DNA from: Oscillatoria nigro-viridis PCC 7112
GTDB taxonomy: Bacteria; Cyanobacteriota; Cyanobacteriia; Cyanobacteriales; Microcoleaceae
DNA length: 64,000 nt
Assembly (NCBI RefSeq): GCF_000317475.1
Contig: NC_019729.1
Coordinates: 1,564,501 to 1,628,500 of the forward strand
Reading direction: 5' to 3'
The notes below the pieces were generated by a model. It was not told the DNA's origin and did not search any database. It saw nothing but the letters and a program-made list of their open reading frames with translations. Positions within the stretch are counted from its first letter, which is position 1, and every line of letters begins with the position of its first letter. A program made the translations under genes and the position numbers. Shown here piece after piece: positions 52,894 to 62,803 of the stretch.

Positions 52894-54492
52894 ATGGCAC
52901 AAGCGTCTGTATCTCCTGTAGTGCTGATTATTCTAGACGGCTGGGGTTATCGTGAAGAAAAAGACGGAAATGCGATCGCTACTGCAAAAACACCCGTGAT
53001 GGACAGTCTCTGGGCCGCTTATCCCAGAACTCTGATTAAAACATCGGGCCGGGCGGTAGGGCTGCCAGATGGGCAAATGGGCAACTCAGAGGTTGGTCAC
53101 TTGAATCTGGGCGCGGGCCGGGTGGTTCCTCAAGAGTTGGTGCGGATCTCGGATGCAGTGGAAGATGGTTCTTTGCTCAACAACCGGGCGCTGGTTGAGC
53201 TTTGCGAGAAAGTCAGCGCCACGGGCGGCAAGTTGCACCTGACTGGTCTTTGTTCTGAAGGTGGGGTTCATTCCCATCTCAGTCATATTAAGGGTTTGCT
53301 GCAATTAGCAAAAGCACGGGGAATTTCTGATGTTTGCATTCACGCCATTACAGACGGTCGTGATACTACTCCGAAAGAGGGTGTCGAAGCTCTAGGCAAG
53401 ATTCAAAGTTATATCGCAGAGGTAGGGGTCGGTCGGATTGCGACCATTAGCGGCCGCTACTACGCGATGGACAGGGACAAGCGCTGGGATCGCGTCCAGC
53501 GCGCTTACGAGGTGATGACGACTGAGGGTGCTCCTGACGGTCGATCGGCTGTGGATGTGTTGCAGGCCTCCTATGCGGTCGGAGTGACCGACGAGTTTGC
53601 TGTTCCGACTCGGATTGCTCCGGGGGCTGTGGCATCCGGGGATGGGCTAATTTTCTTCAATTTTCGCCCGGACAGGGCTAGAGAATTGACTCAGGCTTTT
53701 GTATCTCCCGATTTTAAGGGGTTTGAACGGCAGTTAATTGAGCCCCTGGCGTTTGCGACTTTTACTCAGTACGACCCGAAACTGTCGGTAATGGTGGCTT
53801 TTGAACCGCAGAATTTGAACAATATTCTGGGCGAGGTGATTTCTAAGCACGGTTTGCGGCAGTTGCGGACGGCGGAAACTGAAAAGTACGCTCATGTGAC
53901 TTATTTTTTTAATGGGGGTCTGGAAGAGCCTTTTGCAGGGGAAGACCGCGAGTTGGTGCAGAGTCCGATGGTGGCTACTTACGATGAGGCGCCCCAGATG
54001 TCGGCGGACTTGGTGACGGATGGGGTGGTGACGGCTTTGGGAAAAGGCATTTATTCGTTTGTGGTGATTAACTACGCTAACCCGGATATGGTTGGTCATA
54101 CGGGGAGGATGGATGCGACGATAATTGCGATCGAAACTGTGGATAAATGTTTGGGGCGGCTGTTGAGCGCGATTAGTAAAGCTGGAGGTACGGCAATTAT
54201 TATTGCTGACCACGGCAATGCTGAGCAGATGTTTGACGAGGACGGGAATCCCTGGACGGCTCACACTACTAACCCCGTGCCGTTTATTCTGGTAGAAGGC
54301 GAAGGTCTGAAGATTCCGGGTCACGGAACGGATGTTCCTCTGAGGGCTGACGGTTGTTTGGCGGATATTGCGCCGACAATTCTGGAGCTGTTGAGGTTGC
54401 CTCAGCCCCCGGAGATGACGGGACGCTCTATGATTCGATCGGCTGAGTTTGAAGTTCGTGCCAATCGCACTCCGGTGCGAGTCCGATTGTAG
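52894..54492 (+). CDS. gpmI: 2,3-bisphosphoglycerate-independent phosphoglycerate mutase
   Basis: A 532-residue iPGM of normal length. VVLIILDGWGYREEKDGNAI supplies the first metal Asp, GQMGNSEVGHLNLGAGRVVP holds the catalytic Ser65, HAITDGRDTTPKEGVEALGK follows, and the C-terminal metal ligands are in NYANPDMVGHTGRM and IIIADHGNAEQMFDEDG. The enzyme interconverts 3- and 2-phosphoglycerate in glycolysis and in drawing carbon from the Calvin cycle. Cyanobacteria use this Mn-dependent type for PirC-regulated carbon flow (known in Synechocystis). Confidence 0.97.
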   Translation: MAQASVSPVVLIILDGWGYREEKDGNAIATAKTPVMDSLWAAYPRTLIKTSGRAVGLPDGQMGNSEVGHLNLGAGRVVPQELVRISDAVEDGSLLNNRALVELCEKVSATGGKLHLTGLCSEGGVHSHLSHIKGLLQLAKARGISDVCIHAITDGRDTTPKEGVEALGKIQSYIAEVGVGRIATISGRYYAMDRDKRWDRVQRAYEVMTTEGAPDGRSAVDVLQASYAVGVTDEFAVPTRIAPGAVASGDGLIFFNFRPDRARELTQAFVSPDFKGFERQLIEPLAFATFTQYDPKLSVMVAFEPQNLNNILGEVISKHGLRQLRTAETEKYAHVTYFFNGGLEEPFAGEDRELVQSPMVATYDEAPQMSADLVTDGVVTALGKGIYSFVVINYANPDMVGHTGRMDATIIAIETVDKCLGRLLSAISKAGGTAIIIADHGNAEQMFDEDGNPWTAHTTNPVPFILVEGEGLKIPGHGTDVPLRADGCLADIAPTILELLRLPQPPEMTGRSMIRSAEFEVRANRTPVRVRL

Positions 54493-54966: not shown

Positions 54967-55206
54967 ATGAATATTGTTTCTGTGTTACAAGTTATCTGGT
55001 CTTTGTCTGCTTTAGGACTTGTGGTTTTTGTGTTGCTGCACAGTCCTAAAGGCGATGGCATTGGAGGGATTGGCGGACAAGCTCAATTGTTTACCAGCGC
55101 CAAGAGTGCAGAAACAAGTCTGAACCGGATTACTTGGGGTCTGTCTATTGTTTTTATGGGTTTGACTGTGATTTTGAGTGCTGGTTGGTTGGCGCCTAAG
55201 TTATAA
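54967..55206 (+). CDS. secG: Preprotein translocase subunit SecG
   Basis: A 79-residue membrane protein with two transmembrane helices (SVLQVIWSLSALGLVVFVLL and WGLSIVFMGLTVILSAGWLA) and the conserved loop LHSPKGDGIGGIGGQAQLFT between them. It is the accessory subunit of the SecYEG channel in plasma and thylakoid membranes. Length is normal. It lies on the same strand as gpmI but is separated from it by the palindromic element. Confidence 0.93.
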   Translation: MNIVSVLQVIWSLSALGLVVFVLLHSPKGDGIGGIGGQAQLFTSAKSAETSLNRITWGLSIVFMGLTVILSAGWLAPKL

Positions 55207-55218
55207 GATTCAATATCA

Positions 55219-55362
55219 CGGGCGAGACGCCCGTGCCACATGAGCTCAGGGGCGAGACGCCCGTGCCACATGAGCTCAGGGGCGAGACGCCCGTGCCACA
55301 TGAGCTCAGGGGCGGGACGCCCGTGCCACATGAGCTCAGGGGCGAGACGCCCGTGCCACATA
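55219..55362. repeat. 30-bp tandem repeat, five copies
   Basis: The unit, read as GGGCGAGACGCCCGTGCC followed by ACATGAGCTCAG, is repeated at a fixed 30-bp period (55221, 55251, 55281, 55311, 55341). One base differs in copy four, and the last copy lacks the tail. Each unit has a small palindrome (GGGCGAGACGCCC). There are no unique spacers. It follows secG directly. Confidence 0.95.
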
Positions 55363-56917: not shown

Positions 56918-57397
56918 TTATTTGTTGATTTTCTGCGCTTCTGCGTGGTGTTGCAAGCGAGAGAAAACGTTGTAGGCATCGGGGCCGGGATTGCCATGTT
57001 CGACTGCACCGTCGATGGGGCCGTCGATGGCTTTCCAAGCAGGAATTCCGCCTTTTAGTTCGGCTACTCTTCTAAAGCCTGCTGCGCGGAGAAGATTGGC
57101 AGCTTCGGCGGTTTGTTCGTCGTTTTCGCCGTAGATGTAGATGTCGCGGATGGGTTCTAAACTGGATTGTGCTCGATCGACTAATTCGTATATTGGCATG
57201 GGTACGGCGCCGGTAATGTGGCTTTTGGCGAAGGTTTCAAAGTCGCGGGCGTCGATGATTGTGAGTCCGGGTTCGCCCCAATCTAAACGCGCTTTGAGGT
57301 CGTGGCTAGAGGCTTGAGCTTTTAAACCGGGAGGGGTGGGAGTAAAGTCGGGAAGTTTTTCTTTGATGTTGGAAATTTGGTCTGGAATAGTTTTCAT
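56918..57397 (-). CDS. Rhodanese-fold protein lacking the catalytic Cys
   Basis: A 159-residue protein from ATG 57397; the frame is open to 57430 (GTG). The rhodanese domain is clear: GLTIIDARDFETFAKSHITG, AVPMPIYELVDRAQSSLEPI, AANLLRAAGFRRVAELKGGI and PAWKAIDGP. The active-site loop normally has Cys (C-x5-R pattern), but here it reads IYIYGENDEQTAEA with no Cys. Sulfur transfer is therefore not expected and a binding or regulatory role is more likely. It is divergent from the three-gene ATPase operon. Confidence 0.85.
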   Translation of the reverse strand: MKTIPDQISNIKEKLPDFTPTPPGLKAQASSHDLKARLDWGEPGLTIIDARDFETFAKSHITGAVPMPIYELVDRAQSSLEPIRDIYIYGENDEQTAEAANLLRAAGFRRVAELKGGIPAWKAIDGPIDGAVEHGNPGPDAYNVFSRLQHHAEAQKINK

Positions 57398-57430
57398 GGG
57401 TAAACTGTTGTTGAATGTTTTGATTGCCAC

Positions 57431-57803
57431 TGCAATGTAACAAGATGCTTAAGTTGAATTCGTCTTTCTAAAGGCAGAATCGAGCATTGAACTAAAGTCG
57501 CAGTTACGCTAATTTGCTGGTTGTTAGCTGCGGTTGGGATCGCTACATTTGTTGAGGTTGCTAGAGCGTAGCGGGCTGTGCTTAAAATTGTTTCGATCGC
57601 ATTTAGTGTGGAGAATGTGAAGTGCGATAGATTGTTTGATTCGCTATTTTATCAAACAATCACATTTTAGTCAATGCCTATTATTTTTAAATTAACTTTG
57701 CATAAGTTGTGCATAGCGTCGCGCGGATTTTTGCGGAAAAGTTTAAATGTTTCTCAGCAAGGTTTCTGGTACACTTTAAAAGTAAAAACAAGTATTTAAA
57801 GGT
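57431..57803. other. Divergent intergenic region before the ATPase operon
   Basis: This 373-bp gap contains a perfect palindrome (next entry) and AT-rich DNA leading to the operon start. The best -10-like box near it is TACACT (57770-57775, GGTACACTTTAAAAG); no convincing -35 was found. No gene is seen. Confidence 0.5.
57630..57661. promoter_or_regulatory. Perfect 11-bp inverted repeat, candidate operator
   Basis: GATTGTTTGAT (57630-57640) and ATCAAACAATC (57651-57661) are exact inverses around TCGCTATTTT. It lies about 145-170 nt before the winged-helix gene and between divergent genes, so it is more likely an operator or hairpin in a leader than a terminator. The first gene of the operon encodes a DNA-binding fold that could bind it. 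Confidence 0.5.
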
Positions 57804-58529
57804 ATGAATATGTCTGAGAATAGTGAAATTGCGGTGCCTATAACTTTGACACCAGAAGAGCAAGCGGTGTGGGATGCGAAGGCGAAAGTTCGGGTACTGC
57901 TGAATTTGTGGGATTTGAGCGGCGGGAAGATGAAGGTGAAAAAGGGGGATTTGACTAAGCGAATTGTGCGGACTAATGAGACGAGTCAGAGATATGTGGA
58001 AGTGCTCGGCGAGTTGCAGGCGACTGGGGCGATCGAGTATTCGCTGGTAAATCGGGTGACGCTGGTGGAATTGACGGCGAAGGGGAAAGAAGTTTTAGCG
58101 CAGGGGCTGAAAAGTCGGGATTCTCTGTTTGAGTTTGACGGTTCTCAAATTGGTACTCGGCTGGGAAATTCTTTGTTGAAGTGGATTCGGCATCAGGATG
58201 GTGCGGCAAGTGTTGCGGTTGAGAAGGGGAAGGCGGATGCAGGGGCGATCGCATCCTATGAGGATTTTAAGTCTCAAGCCCTTGCCCTATTTGAGAAATT
58301 GGACAAAGGCTACAACTACATGGGACTTGTCCCAATCTGGCATCTGCGCCGTGAGCTAGGGGAACAGGTTAGCCGGGAGAATTTCAAAGACTTGATTATG
58401 CAGATGCAGGCCGATCGTTTATTTTATCTCCAAAGTGGAGAGGCTCGTGGAGCAACTGATGAACAAAAGCAAGACTCGATCAGCGATGACATAAGAGGTC
58501 TTTTATTTTTCGCTAGCAAACCATCTTGA
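57804..58529 (+). CDS. Winged-helix protein, first gene of ATPase-nuclease operon
   Basis: A 241-residue protein of no named family. The first part (LTPEEQAVWDAKAKVRVLLN, KGDLTKRIVRTNETSQRYVE, LVNRVTLVELTAKGKEVLAQ) has the shape of a winged helix. A second helical/wing-like segment lies at residues 150-235 (SQALALFEKLDKGYNYMGLV, PIWHLRRELGEQVSRENFKD, QADRLFYLQSGE). The whole suggests two tandem winged helices, a common DNA-reading module. It ends 17 nt before the ATPase start, so they are co-translated. It could be a regulator of the operon or a structural DNA-binding subunit; the sequence does not decide. Confidence 0.7.
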   Translation: MNMSENSEIAVPITLTPEEQAVWDAKAKVRVLLNLWDLSGGKMKVKKGDLTKRIVRTNETSQRYVEVLGELQATGAIEYSLVNRVTLVELTAKGKEVLAQGLKSRDSLFEFDGSQIGTRLGNSLLKWIRHQDGAASVAVEKGKADAGAIASYEDFKSQALALFEKLDKGYNYMGLVPIWHLRRELGEQVSRENFKDLIMQMQADRLFYLQSGEARGATDEQKQDSISDDIRGLLFFASKPS

Positions 58530-58546
58530 GATTGAGGCAGAAAACA

Positions 58547-60367
58547 ATGACTGATCCGTATACACCGTTTGAAGAAGCACGCAAGCAACAGCCGAATCCT
58601 TTCAAATTGAAACCCATCGTAAGCGCGGATGAGGTTTGGGGTGAAGTCGTAACTGATCTCCCTGACCTCAACCAACAGGTTGACCAAACAATCTATAAAG
58701 CAATTTCTGAAGTCCGCCAAAAATATTCTGATAAAATCGGGATTGCAGTCAAAGGTGATAGAGGCACAGGCAAAAGTCATACAATCCACCGGATATGGAA
58801 AACTATTGAGCGTGAGGGCGGAGCTGTATTTGCCTACATCCCTCAATTTACTAACGCTAGTCGAATTGACTCCCATGTACGATTCTATCTTTCACTCAGC
58901 TTTAAGCACCAAGATGTCAGAGGAGTAACGCAATGGCAGCAACTTGCTGCGTCTATGATTGCGACTCTTAAGGGAACAGAATTTGAAGAAAAATACCAGC
59001 CCTATCTTGAAAAATGCCATCATCCTGAAGAATTAAGGAAATACCTCATTCAAAATCTCAACCAACCTCAAAGATATGAATTTATTGATGAGGTAATCGA
59101 AGCAATCTTAGAATCTCAACATGACCTTGACTTTAATTTTTTGAAAGCCGTTTTATTTCTCATATTTAGATCGGCTCCAATCGCTCAAGTTGGTATGGCT
59201 TGGATTCAAGGTATAGATCATCCTGAAACCAAGCAAAGGGGTTTACCAGAGTTTTCGCAGCAAGAACAAGATGCAAAGTCTATTTGGTTCATAGAGCAGA
59301 TATGTAAGCTTGCTGGAGTTTCATCACGCCCCGTATTGATTTGTTTCGATCAACTAGACCAAGTTAGTGTCGGTAATGACTGCGGAGATAGCGCTGCTCA
59401 AATAGTAGCTAGCTGCATAGATAGAATTTACTTTCAATGTAGCAATGTACTTCTCCTCTGTTGCGTTATTAGCGACACCTGGAAGGAAATTGAACAAATG
59501 GGAAGTGGCATACCCGATCGTGTAGGACAAAGGTCTGTAGCTACAAACCCACCTACTTCTGATCAGATGTTAGAGCTTGTTAAATTGAGGCTAGCTTGGT
59601 TTCACAGCAAAAATAATCTAAATTCTGATGATTACCCTAATTTATATCCTTTTGATGCTAATCAAATCAGAGGTATTGCAAGTAAAGCTGCTGGTGTGCG
59701 AGACTTGATGAAATGGTGTGCTGAACAATTTGATTCAGTGGAAATTGTAGATCCAGGAACTTCAACGAGAGACCCGATCAACAATAAACAGCAAGAGTTT
59801 CTGGATTCTTATTCTGAACTCTTGAATCGAGTTTCAGTCCCCGAACAAAACGATGATCAGTTAGCTGCTATTATTGCCTCTACAATGGCAATGATTCCTA
59901 AATGTGGAACAGAAAATGTAATAATTACTTCGGTTACACATATTAATCAGGCAGGTCACGATCTACATTTGATTATTGAGGGCCACGATTCTCTTCAACA
60001 AAAAACAGTAAGAATTGGAGTCAGAGTTTCCGAAACTTTGACGGGCATGACATTCAATGCAGTAATGCAACGACTGTTGAAATATGCCAAACATAACATT
60101 ACTCGTGGTTGCTTAGTCCGCTCAACACCCGTTCCCCTCAGTTGGAAGAAAGGCAAACAGCTTGAAGAAAAACTTGTACAGGAACAAGGAGGTGAAGTTG
60201 TTGTTCTAAAGAAGGATGAGATCAAGCCTTTAGCAGCACTTCATCAAATTTACGAGGAGGCTGAGAACTACGGGTTTACTAAGCAGGAAGTGATTGACTT
60301 CGTTCAAGAATTAAACCTGGCTGCTAAAAATCCACTACTTTGTGAAATTCTAAGCGCTCCTACTTAA
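58547..60367 (+). CDS. P-loop ATPase, central gene of the operon
   Basis: A 606-residue protein from ATG 58547 (MTDPYTPFEEARKQQPNPF) with GAGG upstream. The Walker A motif is AVKGDRGTGKSHTIHRIW (residues 70-78) and Walker B is PVLICFDQLDQVS (about 265-272). Arg-rich helices (DRVGQRSVATNP, ELVKLRLAWFHSKN) follow in the lid. Layout resembles ORC/Cdc6-type or STAND-like AAA+ ATPases. The C-terminal part (VRIGVRVSETLTGMTFNAVM, then RGCLVRSTPVPLSWKKGKQL) is a separate alpha/beta domain not recognised. It is 1 nt from the nuclease gene. It likely couples ATP to DNA or RNA remodelling with its two neighbours. Confidence 0.8.
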   Translation: MTDPYTPFEEARKQQPNPFKLKPIVSADEVWGEVVTDLPDLNQQVDQTIYKAISEVRQKYSDKIGIAVKGDRGTGKSHTIHRIWKTIEREGGAVFAYIPQFTNASRIDSHVRFYLSLSFKHQDVRGVTQWQQLAASMIATLKGTEFEEKYQPYLEKCHHPEELRKYLIQNLNQPQRYEFIDEVIEAILESQHDLDFNFLKAVLFLIFRSAPIAQVGMAWIQGIDHPETKQRGLPEFSQQEQDAKSIWFIEQICKLAGVSSRPVLICFDQLDQVSVGNDCGDSAAQIVASCIDRIYFQCSNVLLLCCVISDTWKEIEQMGSGIPDRVGQRSVATNPPTSDQMLELVKLRLAWFHSKNNLNSDDYPNLYPFDANQIRGIASKAAGVRDLMKWCAEQFDSVEIVDPGTSTRDPINNKQQEFLDSYSELLNRVSVPEQNDDQLAAIIASTMAMIPKCGTENVIITSVTHINQAGHDLHLIIEGHDSLQQKTVRIGVRVSETLTGMTFNAVMQRLLKYAKHNITRGCLVRSTPVPLSWKKGKQLEEKLVQEQGGEVVVLKKDEIKPLAALHQIYEEAENYGFTKQEVIDFVQELNLAAKNPLLCEILSAPT

Positions 60368-60368
60368 C

Positions 60369-61856
60369 ATGAATCTTGGAATCATTAAGGGTATTCAATT
60401 ACCAGCTTGTGATGTTGACCTGCTAACATTAGGCAGGCTAATTGCTGTACCATTCAGGCAAAATATCAGAGAAGGTGAGGTACTCTGGCTCTATCCCAGT
60501 CAACACCTTCCTGATAATCTTAGCCTCGATCAATACTATCAGACTCAATATTTGACGAAGGCGGAAAGTGCATTTGCTGAACTTCAAACATATCCTATTC
60601 AGATTAAAGTATGGGCGCGTTGTGAATATCATTGGCGGATTAATCCACAACAAAAGTACCTTCTAGAGAAGATTGCCAAGTCAACCGTTTGGAAATTGGA
60701 AGCTTTGGAACATATTTTTGCACAATACCAAGTTCTCAAGCTATTGATTTTACGAGTTTATCGCCTGTCTAATCCTTGCGTAGTCAATGTGCAAACAGAG
60801 TCAGGAGCCTTCTATTGGCCGCAGCGCGACGATGTGATGGCAATGAATAGCGAGATTGATACTCCGGTGATTTCTGAAGCTAGTTTTTATCAGCGTAAAG
60901 CTCTCTTGGTGGCGGGAGAAGTCTATCCTTATAAATATTTAGAAGCTTTGCAGTTGCAAGTTGAGGAAATTGGTAGTAGCAACTTAGCTGCCAATCCGCT
61001 CAACGATGATATCAAAATGTTTCTAGGTTGGTCGGAAAAATTACCCACAACACAACCAGACCCGGATTTAGCATGGATAAGTGCGATCGCACAAATCGGA
61101 AACTCTAGCGATGGTAATACATTTGAAAAGTTAGTCCGCAAAAGTTTTGTCAAGCTAGGTTTTGTCAATTCTAACACCAATCCGAAAGCTAGTCTCAATC
61201 CAGAATCGACAGGCGGCGCTGGTGGTTTAGACTTTTATTGCGAGACTCCCTATCCAGTAGCGGGAGAGTGCAAAGCTAGCAAATTTGAAAGTGTACCTAA
61301 TAGTGTAACGGCTCAACTAATTCATTTAGGTTTGACTCACTTGGGTCAAGATAAGTTCGATCGATCCGTTAAAATTATTTTGGCGGCTGGGCCTTTAACT
61401 AATCCAGCTAATCAAGCAGCTATTGGTAGTAAAATGAACGTAATTCGCCCTGAAACATTGCAAAAGCTGGTTGAACTGAAAGCTAAGCAACCAGGTTCGA
61501 TCGATTTATTACAGTTAAAACCTTGTTTAGAACAACAGCCGTTTGGTGAGGAAGCCGATGCTAAGGTTAATCGCTATATTGACGAGGTGCGGGAAAAGCT
61601 TAAAGTGCGATCGCACATAGTTCAGCTAGTCAAAGACTTTTTGGAAAGAACAAAATCAACAAGTGTTGAATTTAATCAGCTTCACGGTGCTTATGCCTTT
61701 TCTATGTCGCCCCAACCTTCTTTAAAATATGAAGAAATGCACCAAATTTTAATAGAACTTTCCTCACCTTTGACGGGTTACTTAGGGCGAATTAAAGGCG
61801 AAAATTGGCAAAGCGATCGCTTTTATTTCCTGCGCGACTTGCCGCTAGATGATTGA
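60369..61856 (+). CDS. DUF1802-like protein fused to a PD-(D/E)XK nuclease domain
   Basis: A 495-residue protein. The N-terminal half (LPACDVDLLTLGRLIAVPFR, EVLWLYPSQHLPDNLSLDQY, IKVWARCEYHWRIN, LKLLILRVYRL) matches cyanobacterial DUF1802 from memory. The central part is a restriction-type nuclease: Glu253 in GNTFEKLVRKSFVKLGF, Asp288 in GGAGGLDFYCETPYPV and Glu300-x-Lys302 in AGECKASKFE. The C-terminal 150 residues are helical. Start ATG 60369 is 1 nt after the ATPase stop. An intact PD-(D/E)XK core beside an ATPase and a DNA-binding protein is a typical pattern for mobile-DNA defence or DNA repair. No phage-defence family is recognised. Confidence 0.78.
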   Translation: MNLGIIKGIQLPACDVDLLTLGRLIAVPFRQNIREGEVLWLYPSQHLPDNLSLDQYYQTQYLTKAESAFAELQTYPIQIKVWARCEYHWRINPQQKYLLEKIAKSTVWKLEALEHIFAQYQVLKLLILRVYRLSNPCVVNVQTESGAFYWPQRDDVMAMNSEIDTPVISEASFYQRKALLVAGEVYPYKYLEALQLQVEEIGSSNLAANPLNDDIKMFLGWSEKLPTTQPDPDLAWISAIAQIGNSSDGNTFEKLVRKSFVKLGFVNSNTNPKASLNPESTGGAGGLDFYCETPYPVAGECKASKFESVPNSVTAQLIHLGLTHLGQDKFDRSVKIILAAGPLTNPANQAAIGSKMNVIRPETLQKLVELKAKQPGSIDLLQLKPCLEQQPFGEEADAKVNRYIDEVREKLKVRSHIVQLVKDFLERTKSTSVEFNQLHGAYAFSMSPQPSLKYEEMHQILIELSSPLTGYLGRIKGENWQSDRFYFLRDLPLDD

Positions 61857-62803
61857 GATACGTCAAGGGCGATTAAGAGCGGGATAGATTCGCTCGCGCG
61901 TACTTTATCCAATTTCCTATACAGCATCAGGATCTACGCCCAATTCCCGCAATCTCGCCGCCAACCTTTCAGCGCGTTGATGCTCCTCTTGGGCACGTTG
62001 ACCCTGCTCTTGGGCGCGTTCGCGTTCCATTGCAGCTTCCTGTTCGAGTTGCCGCAATTGAGCGTTTTCTGCCTTAACTAACTCCTCTACCAATGGCGGG
62101 TTTAGTATTTCATCCACCGATAAAACCAGATCGGGAAATACTACAGACACAATTTCCTCACCAGGCAAGAAATCTGTATACGTGTAACCATCTTCACCTT
62201 CAATCAATGCAAAAAGCCTAATTTTTTGCTTACCAACTTTAGGGTCAACAATGCAATATTCTGGCACATTCGCTAATTCGTACTCTCCGCGTTTAATCAC
62301 GTAATCTTCGCGGCGATTTTCGCTGACAACTTCTACCACTAACAGCGGCTTTTCATCAAATTCGAGGATACCTGCACCTGGTCTAGCAGCAGCTTGTTCC
62401 AAAAGACTTTGAGTGCAGACAACTACATCGGGAATCCGAGATTTATCTTCATCTGTTCTCACTCCCAGACCCGTTTTTACTACTAAGTCGAGATTGTGTT
62501 CAGCTAAGTAACGCTGCAATTGGTAAACTAAATATTCGCAAATTTTGATGTGTAAAACTGTGGCTGTTGGCATCGGGATTAATTTGCCTTTGTACAGTTC
62601 ATATCTTACATCAGATTCTCCTTGATAAACTCGGTATTCTTCAAAAGTTAATGTCGGCAAAGTATCGAGCTGTTTTTCTTCGACTGCTGGCACAACAGAT
62701 TGAGACATATATTTTTACCTATCTCGATAGTTTTCTATTATACTAAATTTTGATTTTAACAGTATAGGCTTCGGTTCGGCAAAGATCGCCCTTCTTGACT
62801 CCA
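61835..62803. repeat. Segmental tandem duplication, unit 1
   Basis: The stretch from CGACTTGCCGCTAGATGATT (61835) is repeated from 62804 at about 968-bp offset. Unit 1 begins inside the last codons of the nuclease gene and includes one Uma2 gene. Confidence 0.9.
61917..62708 (-). CDS. Uma2 family (DUF820) putative restriction endonuclease, copy A
   Basis: A 263-residue Uma2 protein. TLTFEEYRVYQGESDVRYEL, KGKLIPMPTATVLH, RIPDVVVCTQSLLEQAAARP and LLVVEVVSENRREDYVIKRG show the family core with its acidic residues. The C-terminal coiled coil QLRQLEQEAAMERERAQEQG is longer than in the neighbour. It is convergent with the nuclease operon; 61 bp separate the stops. Nearest relative is the Uma2 at 44.8 kb, with which it shares long identical stretches. 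Confidence 0.9.
   Translation of the reverse strand: MSQSVVPAVEEKQLDTLPTLTFEEYRVYQGESDVRYELYKGKLIPMPTATVLHIKICEYLVYQLQRYLAEHNLDLVVKTGLGVRTDEDKSRIPDVVVCTQSLLEQAAARPGAGILEFDEKPLLVVEVVSENRREDYVIKRGEYELANVPEYCIVDPKVGKQKIRLFALIEGEDGYTYTDFLPGEEIVSVVFPDLVLSVDEILNPPLVEELVKAENAQLRQLEQEAAMERERAQEQGQRAQEEHQRAERLAARLRELGVDPDAV

What the first reader, a model, noticed from the sequence alone, without database searches (positions are those of the whole stretch)
57804..61856. Three-gene wHTH / P-loop ATPase / DUF1802-PD-(D/E)XK operon: candidate undescribed defence or DNA-processing system
Three genes lie 17 and 1 nt apart. They encode a tandem winged-helix protein, an ATPase with intact Walker A (GDRGTGKS) and B (CFDQLD), and a DUF1802-like protein fused to a nuclease core with Glu253, Asp288 and Glu300-x-Lys302. 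The trio is followed by two Uma2 nuclease-like genes. DNA reader + motor + nuclease is the build of many antiphage and DNA-repair systems, but the set is not a combination I recognise. Function is inferred from architecture alone.
Basis: partly seen in the sequence, partly recalled or inferred. Interest (0 to 1): 0.75.

Follow-up and report, generated by a model that had tools for sequence, protein, structure and literature searches.

The report
Mosaic cyanobacterial defence exchange locus
Three neighbouring genes in a cyanobacterium form a probable, previously undescribed anti-invader system whose ATPase and nuclease parts are swapped independently between strains, and whose place is sometimes taken by other, known or suspected kinds of antiviral system.

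Summary
The three genes are real and intact: winged-helix-like protein (g1), AAA/STAND-type ATPase (g2), DUF1802 plus Mrr-like nuclease (g3). Catalytic residues are invariant in 51 of 51 complete trios. No library names the trio. g2 had no match in plasmid, phage or viral records, g3 none in plasmid or viral records.

The locus is a mosaic. In 20 same-genus trios (17 shown to lie at one chromosomal site) the g1 head is conserved, while g1 tail, g2 and DUF1802 start form five ATPase classes and the nuclease core four. They reassort: 13 of 20 combinations occur, and trees reject shared history. This replicates in a second family. The window's own nuclease is 96-99% identical in DNA to that of a genome whose ATPase is unalignable.

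Six loci carry another payload behind the same g1 head: PLD-SNF2 helicase (3) or a Bunzi-like pair (3); five keep the g3 tail behind it.

Best reading: an undescribed ATP-dependent nuclease defence system in a cassette-exchange locus. Defence function and mechanism are inferred; both structure predictions failed.

The parts
57727..57803 (+). Conserved upstream block (promoter region) with a possible operator: degenerate inverted repeat TTTGCGGAAAA..TTTCTCAGCAAGG at about 57730-57762
   Evidence: Block conserved upstream of g1 in the 28 same-genus loci aligned, including both PLD-helicase variants. The repeat is perfect in G292, G219, G293 and has one mismatch in G092, G109, G285, G301; it is degenerate in the other 21, the window included, which instead has a perfect repeat about 177 bases before the start. 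No chance control was run for these repeats.
57804..58529 (+). g1: winged-helix-like protein, 241 aa; constant head (aa 1-150) and class-matched tail (aa 151-241)
57804..58274 (+). Constant left arm (head of g1); window DNA similarity to 20 same-genus loci with a non-class-A g2 ends at 58271-58274
   Evidence: 20 of 20 such loci compared; the two PLD variants end at 58251; G219, G295, G300, G301 were not given to this call
58547..60367 (+). g2: AAA/STAND-like ATPase, 606 aa, class A; Walker A aa 70-77, Walker B aa 266-271
58275..61005 (+). Exchange cassette I as carried by the window: g1 tail + g2 + DUF1802 part of g3; no BLASTN match to the same-genus loci of other classes, 84% to G269, 72% to a genome of another family (G020, HSP 58128-61857)
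60369..61856 (+). g3: DUF1802 domain (aa 10-177) fused to an Mrr-like PD-(D/E)XK nuclease core (E253, D288, E300-x-K302), 495 aa
61006..61730 (+). Exchange cassette II: nuclease core of g3 (class b), 96-99% identical in DNA to G033 (from codon 241 on) although the ATPases of the two are unalignable
61731..61856 (+). Constant right arm: C-terminal tail of g3; part of it is also found behind the alien payload in 5 of 6 swapped loci
56918..57430 (-). Left flank gene of the site (rhodanese-like by recall; no family scan run); not part of the system
61917..62708 (-). Uma2-family gene, right flank of the site; convergent, not part of the operon

Best explanation
The trio is an undescribed anti-invader (phage and/or foreign DNA) defence system, sitting in a defence-exchange locus. 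Shown: a recurrent three-gene operon with intact ATPase and nuclease motifs; a mosaic in which one cassette (g1 tail + ATPase + start of DUF1802) and a second cassette (nuclease core) are exchanged independently between a constant regulator-like head and a constant nuclease tail; substitution of the interior by a PLD-SNF2 helicase or by a Bunzi-like pair. Inferred mechanism: the g1 head binds its own promoter and keeps whichever payload lies behind it quiet until infection; the g1 tail and the DUF1802 start contact the ATPase (they change with it); the ATPase assembles on or senses invading DNA and uses ATP to license the Mrr-like nuclease domain of g3 to cut it. The nuclease is a plug-in module. 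Allele turnover reflects an arms race with inhibitors or with the recognised target. How self DNA is spared (no methyltransferase among the three proteins) is unknown.
For: 52 of 66 g1 hits have g2 and g3 behind them; catalytic residues invariant in 51 of 51 complete trios. 20 same-genus trios: ATPase classes A-E, nuclease classes a-d, 13 of 20 combinations, no association (4756 of 5000 shuffles reach the observed mutual information). AU tests reject the four ATPase classes with more than one member in nuclease data (p 5e-4 to 2e-34) and the four nuclease classes in ATPase data (p 1e-3 to 1e-77). Segment test: g1 211-241 (partial r 0.93) and g3 1-90 (0.59-0.70) track the ATPase, the nuclease core does not (-0.05 to 0.06); without class A 0.88, 0.23-0.47 and -0.15 to 0.01; replicated in 20 trios of family f33 (0.95; 0.61-0.86; -0.12 to 0.08). 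Other payloads behind the same g1 head: PLD-SNF2 helicase in G299, G255 and G056 (by 62% identity); BnzB in the two scanned (3.7e-62, 9.8e-62) of three loci of one architecture; the g3 tail lies behind the payload in 5 of 6. In G058 the trio locus and the Bunzi-like locus share 62 identical bases upstream of the g1 start and g1 heads 85% identical. Patchy presence: 43 of 291 phylum genomes have a g3 hit above 300 bits (my count).
Against: No functional datum. PADLOC gives no match at E<=1 for g1 or g3 and only weak local ones for g2, best 15.7 bits to Avs2. Both structure predictions failed, so fold, oligomer and contacts are untested; co-variation of segments could reflect linkage as well as contact. 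DNA binding by g1 rests on weak profile matches. The neighbours of the window's site look like ordinary chromosomal genes, not a defence island, and there was no hit on phage, plasmid or viral contigs, where many defence systems are carried. The ATPase family has stand-alone paralogues without g1 or g3, and three g1-g2 pairs showed no g3. One swapped locus (L146) lacks the g3 tail and keeps a whole g1; in L148 the tail match is only 19 residues. Same site is shown for only 17 of the 20 trios. No genome-wide control for the mosaic pattern was run.
Confidence: 0.68

Rival explanations
1. A barrier against incoming or plasmid DNA (restriction-like or Wadjet-like in effect) rather than an antiphage system: the ATPase recognises a form of DNA and the nuclease destroys it, mainly limiting transformation and plasmids.
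For: Mrr-like nuclease core; none of the three proteins matches a modification enzyme; no carriage of g2 or g3 on the 72,556 plasmid records searched.
Against: The alternative payloads include a Bunzi-like pair, known as antiphage (recalled), and absence from plasmids is only weak evidence.
Confidence: 0.2
2. A housekeeping DNA repair or chromosome maintenance module that happens to evolve fast.
For: Stable position beside the same genes in 17 of 20 trios; a stand-alone ATPase paralogue lies near a 1241-aa SMC-like ORF in L050 (SMC is recall from its N-terminus).
Against: Patchy presence, decayed or remnant-only loci (G295, G499, G470, G077), hypervariable interior with conserved flanks, replacement by defence-type genes.
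Confidence: 0.06
3. A kin- or self-recognition (allorecognition-like) locus: diversity is maintained so that strains differ, and the nuclease acts on non-kin DNA or in contact-dependent antagonism.
For: Many deep alleles with free reassortment, mostly at one site.
Against: No secretion or surface family among the matches of the three proteins; alternative payloads are of intracellular defence types.
Confidence: 0.05
4. A mobile element remnant (for example a Tn7-like TnsA/TnsC pair) rather than a defence system.
For: AAA-type ATPase next to a PD-(D/E)XK nuclease resembles TnsC plus TnsA in outline (recall).
Against: No TniB or TnsC family among the Pfam hits shown for g2 (one search shows 25 of 32 families); no further + strand ORF of 90 aa or more between the flank genes; position is fixed in 17 of 20 trios.
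Confidence: 0.01

Closest known systems
Type I restriction specificity (HsdS) domain shuffling (recalled)
   Same: Domains swapped by recombination between constant stretches, giving many combinations at one locus.
   Different: Here the swapped parts are an ATPase with the ends of its neighbours, and a nuclease core; no methyltransferase or HsdS match among the three proteins.
Core defence hotspots, e.g. in Pseudomonas aeruginosa (PMC10250203, search listing only)
   Same: Different defence systems occupy the same chromosomal place between conserved genes.
   Different: Here the exchange points lie inside genes: the head of the regulator-like gene and the tail of the nuclease gene stay behind around alien payloads (5 of 6 loci).
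BrxR/CapW-type and CapK-CapS regulators (PMC9122601 abstract and outline; PMC13373217 passages)
   Different: g1 homologues have no WYL or STAS match; the g1 tail co-varies with the ATPase, so it is probably also a structural partner; it is cut short in 5 of the 6 swapped loci.
BREX and BREX-related ATPase systems (PMC12839542, outline and passages)
   Same: ORC/Cdc6- or STAND-like ATPase with winged-helix partners.
   Different: No BrxC/D family match for window g2, no PglZ or methyltransferase match; neither 'cyanobacteri' nor 'DUF1802' occurs in that text by word search.
DS-41 of DefensePredictor (NCBIfam NF053860; PMC13092281, one passage)
   Same: 10 of 24 g2 homologues match its ATPase model weakly, best 1.9e-6.
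   Different: Window score 15.7 bits against a cut-off of 370; no DS-41 model matched g1 or g3.
Bunzi (BnzA/BnzB)
   Same: A Bunzi-like pair occupies the interior of three related loci behind the same g1 head.
   Different: It is an alternative payload; the window trio has no match to its models. The first gene of the pair matches BnzA only at 0.0061.

Membership tests
BREX / BREX-related | BrxC/D-type ATPase | tested here: not met
   PF10923 not among the window g2 hits at E<=1; 0.057 and 0.14 for two stand-alone paralogues
BREX / BREX-related | PglZ and methyltransferase in the operon | tested here: not met
   The three proteins match neither; genes farther away in other genomes were not scanned
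Mrr-like (type IV) restriction nuclease | PD-(D/E)XK core with E..D..ExK | tested here: met
   Residues 51 of 51; Mrr_cat in 19 of 26, best 4.4e-5; window itself 0.089, 13.4 bits against a cut-off of 21
Mrr-like (type IV) restriction nuclease | Core superimposes on a solved PD-(D/E)XK fold | tested here: inconclusive
   Model pLDDT 38, no fold search made with it
Mrr-like (type IV) restriction nuclease | Cleaves modified DNA | not testable with these tools
   Needs an assay
DS-41 | NF053860 above cut-off | tested here: not met
   15.7 of 370 bits
AVAST (Avs STAND) | Large Avs protein with STAND plus C-terminal sensor repeats | tested here: not met
   Local match of 93 residues to a 1375-column model, 15.7 bits
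Bunzi | BnzA and BnzB in the window trio | tested here: not met
   No match; BnzB is found in swapped loci
P-loop ATPase Sll1717 family (NF047389) | Score above the family cut-off | tested here: inconclusive
   13 of 24 homologues at E<=0.1, best 3e-9, cut-off not shown; window not matched at E<=1
Defence system of any kind | Protects against phage or foreign DNA | not testable with these tools
   Inferred from genetics only

The most novel reading that the evidence does not exclude
A combinatorial bacterial immune locus: a constant regulator head and a constant nuclease tail act as exchange arms between which ATPase-sensor cassettes and nuclease cassettes are shuffled independently by recombination, and into which entirely different defence systems are dropped and placed under the same promoter and regulator. 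Diversity is thus generated by domain shuffling in a system that is not restriction-modification, in several cyanobacterial families.
Probability: 0.5. Interest if true: 0.87.

Novelty: new variant of a known kind. Interest (0 to 1): 0.77.

Why it matters
If true, it adds an undescribed ATPase-nuclease defence family spread through many cyanobacterial families, and it shows immune diversity made by exchange of an ATPase module and a nuclease module as separate parts. It gives a direct search handle (g1 head and g3 tail as bait) for further payloads, and natural chimeras that suggest which surfaces must match (g1 tail, ATPase, DUF1802 start) and which need not (nuclease core).

Tried and rejected
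Sequence and profile searches against PDB gave nothing usable: single proteins and profiles (the top hits of g2 at 0.033, YTH domains, are taken as chance). AlphaFold with the few sequences allowed (4 rows for g3, 3 rows for g2) failed (pLDDT 38 and 47). A Foldseek search of the g2 model gave nothing at E<=0.001; the first row is a carboxyltransferase, and EcoT38I, MspJI and SPARDA chains stand among the first 20 rows, which would fit an inactive nuclease-like fold in the C-terminal third of g2, but this is a hint, not a result. Plasmid, phage and viral collections: no relative of g2 or g3 on plasmids or of g2 on phages, none for the profiles of g3 and g2 on viral contigs (a pattern-based scan); g1 was not searched there, nor g3 on phages. 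The single genome-contig scan used g2 alone, reaches close relatives only, and found 3, so presence outside cyanobacteria is not settled; DUF1802 rings in 2 of 14 control genomes, Synechococcus elongatus and Deinobacterium chartae. An operator shared by all loci: the inverted repeat is good in 7 of 28 loci and degenerate in the rest, so only a candidate. First assignment of nuclease classes from the whole g3 tree was misleading because the DUF1802 half follows the ATPase; it was replaced by a tree of the core alone. Searches used the earlier whole-g3 classes; one search repeats the test without classes. Considered and rejected: Uma2 genes as part of the system; Tn7-like remnant; contig chimeras as the cause (G033 and G264 are single-contig genomes, and 20 loci share the left break). 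Rows dropped before counts: only trios with g2 over 560 aa and g3 over 430 aa entered the trees and segment tests (51 of 52 trios among 66 g1 hits); broken or contig-cut copies (for example G001, G209, G219, G300, G301, L044, L154) were left out, and of the f33 loci L170, L176 and L177 were left out.
Full report
WHAT IS THERE. The window holds three + strand genes at 57804-58529, 58547-60367 and 60369-61856, 17 and 1 bases apart. I call them g1, g2, g3. g3 carries DUF1802 (8.2e-18) at residues 10-177 and a weak Mrr_cat match at 247-367 (0.089, below the cut-off); among 26 homologues scanned one by one, DUF1802 is found in 26 and Mrr_cat in 19 at E<=0.1, best 4.4e-5. g2 is an AAA-type ATPase: AAA_16 in 23 of 24 homologues, best 7.8e-10, KAP_NTPase in 20. 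g1 has only weak winged-helix matches. PADLOC and NCBIfam name none of the three. The word DUF1802 occurs in one paper of the library, a soil network study by its title (listing only). The host is a cyanobacterium by its named relatives (Microcoleus and Hormoscilla records); its own genus is not named by the tools.

THE TRIO RECURS. g2 relatives occur in 190 of 291 genomes of the order, but this counts stand-alone paralogues too. A g3 profile found matches in 64 of 291 phylum genomes of at least 95% completeness; by my count of that table 43 of 291 have a hit above 300 bits, the rest being short DUF1802 proteins or remnants. In the loci examined, 66 g1 hits were found, 61 with a g2-class ORF right behind (one of them, G295, a scrap) and 52 with all three genes in order; five lack g2 (G255, G299, G300, L146 and a broken g1 in L045), and three apparently intact g1-g2 pairs had no g3 (L047 first copy, L069, L070). 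The loci had been chosen for a g2 or g1 hit. In the 51 complete trios the nuclease residues E253, D288, E300, K302 and the ATPase residues G73, G75, K76, F267, D268 are invariant (that call numbers g2 +7). g2 had no match in plasmid or phage records, g3 none in plasmids, and profiles of g3 and g2 none in viral contigs.

ONE SITE, MANY ALLELES. g1 is found in 28 of 29 same-genus genomes, one copy each. The loci divide as follows: 20 complete trios; 2 with a broken member (G001 g2 in two frames, G209 g3 short); 3 cut by a contig end (G219, G300, G301); 2 with another payload (G255, G299); 1 decayed (G295). In G303 the left flank gene lies 507 bases from a contig end, so absence of g1 there cannot be told. 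Of the 20 trios, 17 show flank genes of the window's site (G294 one such gene, G302 on the right side only); G092, G291 and G292 do not. Where found, flank genes are 86-97% (the gene at 52894), 76-98% (55427), 82-98% (56918), 64-97% (56190) and 64-90% (Uma2) identical to the window's. g1 is 54-86% identical, but g2 is 88% in G269 and only 25-29% in the other 18, and g3 runs from 38 to 74%.

TWO CASSETTES. A tree of g2 puts the 20 trios in five classes that are interspersed with other families: A (window, G269), B (6), C (1), D (3), E (8). A tree of the g3 nuclease core alone gives four classes: a (5), b (5, with the window), c (2), d (8). They combine freely: 13 of 20 combinations among 20 genomes, and 4756 of 5000 shuffles reach the observed mutual information, that is, no association. 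AU tests reject ATPase classes A, B, D, E as clades in nuclease data (p 5e-4, 6e-5, 1e-7, 2e-34) and nuclease classes a-d in ATPase data (p 1e-3, 1e-76, 1e-77, 4e-47) (the groups were named after seeing trees, which the test does not allow for). In 30-residue windows, leaving out class A, g1 211-240 are 88% identical within and 59% between ATPase classes (0 of 500 shuffles), g3 1-30 are 91 against 57 (0 of 500), while g3 241-420 do not follow the ATPase class (376 to 486 of 500) and g1 1-150 do not either (62 to 373 of 500). A test without classes, partial rank correlations given the g1 head, agrees: ATPase core with g1 211-241 r=0.93, with g3 1-90 r=0.59-0.70, with the nuclease core -0.05 to 0.06; leaving out class A 0.88, 0.23-0.47 and -0.15 to 0.01. 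It repeats in 20 trios of another family, f33: 0.95, 0.61-0.86, -0.12 to 0.08. In f33 the whole DUF1802 part (1-210) follows the ATPase (0.61-0.86); in the genus residues 91-210 do so with class A (0.47-0.65) but hardly without it (0.06, 0.35, 0.06, 0.00), where they are 75-91% identical throughout. So the right edge of cassette I is not the same in all comparisons.

THE WINDOW ITSELF IS A MOSAIC. Against G033 the DNA identity is 89-98% in g1 codons 1-160, 38-48% through g2, 38-54% in g3 codons 1-200, then 96-99% from codon 241 to the end. BLASTN from the window ends at 58271-58274 in the 20 same-genus loci with non-class-A g2 that were compared, and resumes at 60990-61014 (nuclease classes a, b) or mostly 61731-61752 (c, d; G277 also has a short piece at 60990). 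The interior matches G020, of another family, at 72% over 58128-61857. The 15 genus genomes with a g2 match in the order search had one match each, so exchange between copies inside one genome is not the likely source. In family f20 trios of different classes stand in tandem: two complete ones in L046, two complete ones and one with a broken g1 in L045.

OTHER PAYLOADS. In G299 and G255 the g1 head (151 and 147 aa) is followed at the same site by a 1089/1083-aa protein with SNF2 and helicase C domains and a PLD-like match just under its cut-off (PF00176 1.3e-16 and 3.2e-16; PADLOC models DrmD, C3a139 HKD+Snf2 and PLD_Helicase at 2e-15 to 7e-6). G056, of another genus, has the same type, 62% identical, behind a full-length g1. 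In G058, G246 and G289 (f33) a g1 head of 101-102 aa is followed by a two-gene set; the second gene matches BnzB of Bunzi (3.7e-62 for G058, 9.8e-62 for G289; G246 was not scanned but has the same architecture), the first one PDC-M09A (1.5e-13, 3.4e-10) and BnzA only at 0.0061 in G058. Directly behind these payloads lies a piece of the g3 tail in 5 of 6 loci: L106 (34 residues, 82%), L112 (27, 70%), L148 (19, 68%), L149 (32, 75%), L150 (32, 78%); L146 lacks it and keeps a g2 scrap before the helicase instead. In G058 both a trio and the Bunzi-like set exist; the 62 bases before the g1 start are identical in the two loci. So the trio and known or candidate defence types are alternatives between the same two ends. 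Loci with only remnants (G499 with g1 head and g3 tail; G470, G077 and G210:C32 with a g3 tail) suggest that the system is also lost.

HOW IT PROBABLY WORKS. Steps shown: operon, catalytic residues, exchange cassettes, substitution. Steps inferred: (i) g1 head as a repressor of its own promoter, from its constancy across payloads, the conserved upstream block and a partly palindromic stretch; (ii) g1 tail, ATPase and DUF1802 start as one assembly, since they change together; (iii) the ATPase as sensor or motor that licenses the nuclease; (iv) the nuclease core as an exchangeable cutting module; (v) an arms race or varied targets as the reason for turnover. Protection of self DNA is unexplained. 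I put about 0.68 on defence with this general mechanism.

COMPARISON. It works like the domain shuffling of type I specificity subunits (recall) joined to a defence hotspot (PMC10250203, listing only), with a regulator in the manner of BrxR (PMC9122601, abstract and outline) or CapK/CapS (PMC13373217, passages). It is not a member of BREX, DS-41, AVAST or Bunzi by the tests listed. The claim that it is undescribed rests only; subscription papers, supplements and DefenseFinder were not searchable.

LIMITS. No experiment; no usable structure; genomes unnamed; draft genomes in part; quick trees; classes drawn from the same data. Whether other genes of these genomes show the same pattern was not tested beyond the flanking genes of the site.

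Noticed in passing
L036 6064-8007, L045 2381-4486, L046 2945-4861, L050 13775-15832: Stand-alone g2-like ATPases without g1 or g3, next to a PhzF-like gene in family f20 and near a 1241-aa SMC-like ORF in L050; possibly a housekeeping branch of the family from which the system arose (PhzF and SMC are recall from sequence starts).
   Followed up: partly
L147, L159, L160, L163: Remnants of the g3 tail without a trio, all near a GAGKVGST/GAGRVGST (dehydrogenase-like) gene and a MutM-like gene; the same pair flanks the f20 locus L036, so the site may be shared between families (gene names by recall).
   Followed up: partly
G000:C1:420728-421249: A second, stand-alone DUF1802 protein (open frame 213 aa, 1.6e-65) in the window's genome; the family also rings in 2 of 14 control genomes, Synechococcus elongatus and Deinobacterium chartae.
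   Followed up: no
window 58547-60367, about aa 458-553 of g2: The best-scored part of the poor g2 model is a beta-rich alpha/beta stretch; restriction enzymes are among weak fold hits, suggesting an inactive nuclease-like domain in the ATPase (nothing at E<=0.001).
   Followed up: partly
window 55083-55361 (-): ORF made of a tandem peptide repeat (MWHGRLAPEL), looks like translated repeat DNA.
   Followed up: no
L045 (G121) and L046 (G104): Trio alleles whose nearest relatives are alternatives at one site in the window's genus stand side by side as tandem trios in family f20.
   Followed up: partly
L047 6057-8673, L069, L070: g1-g2 pairs with no g3 detected behind them; in L047 a complete trio follows directly. 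What takes the place of g3 in L069 and L070 was not looked at.
   Followed up: no
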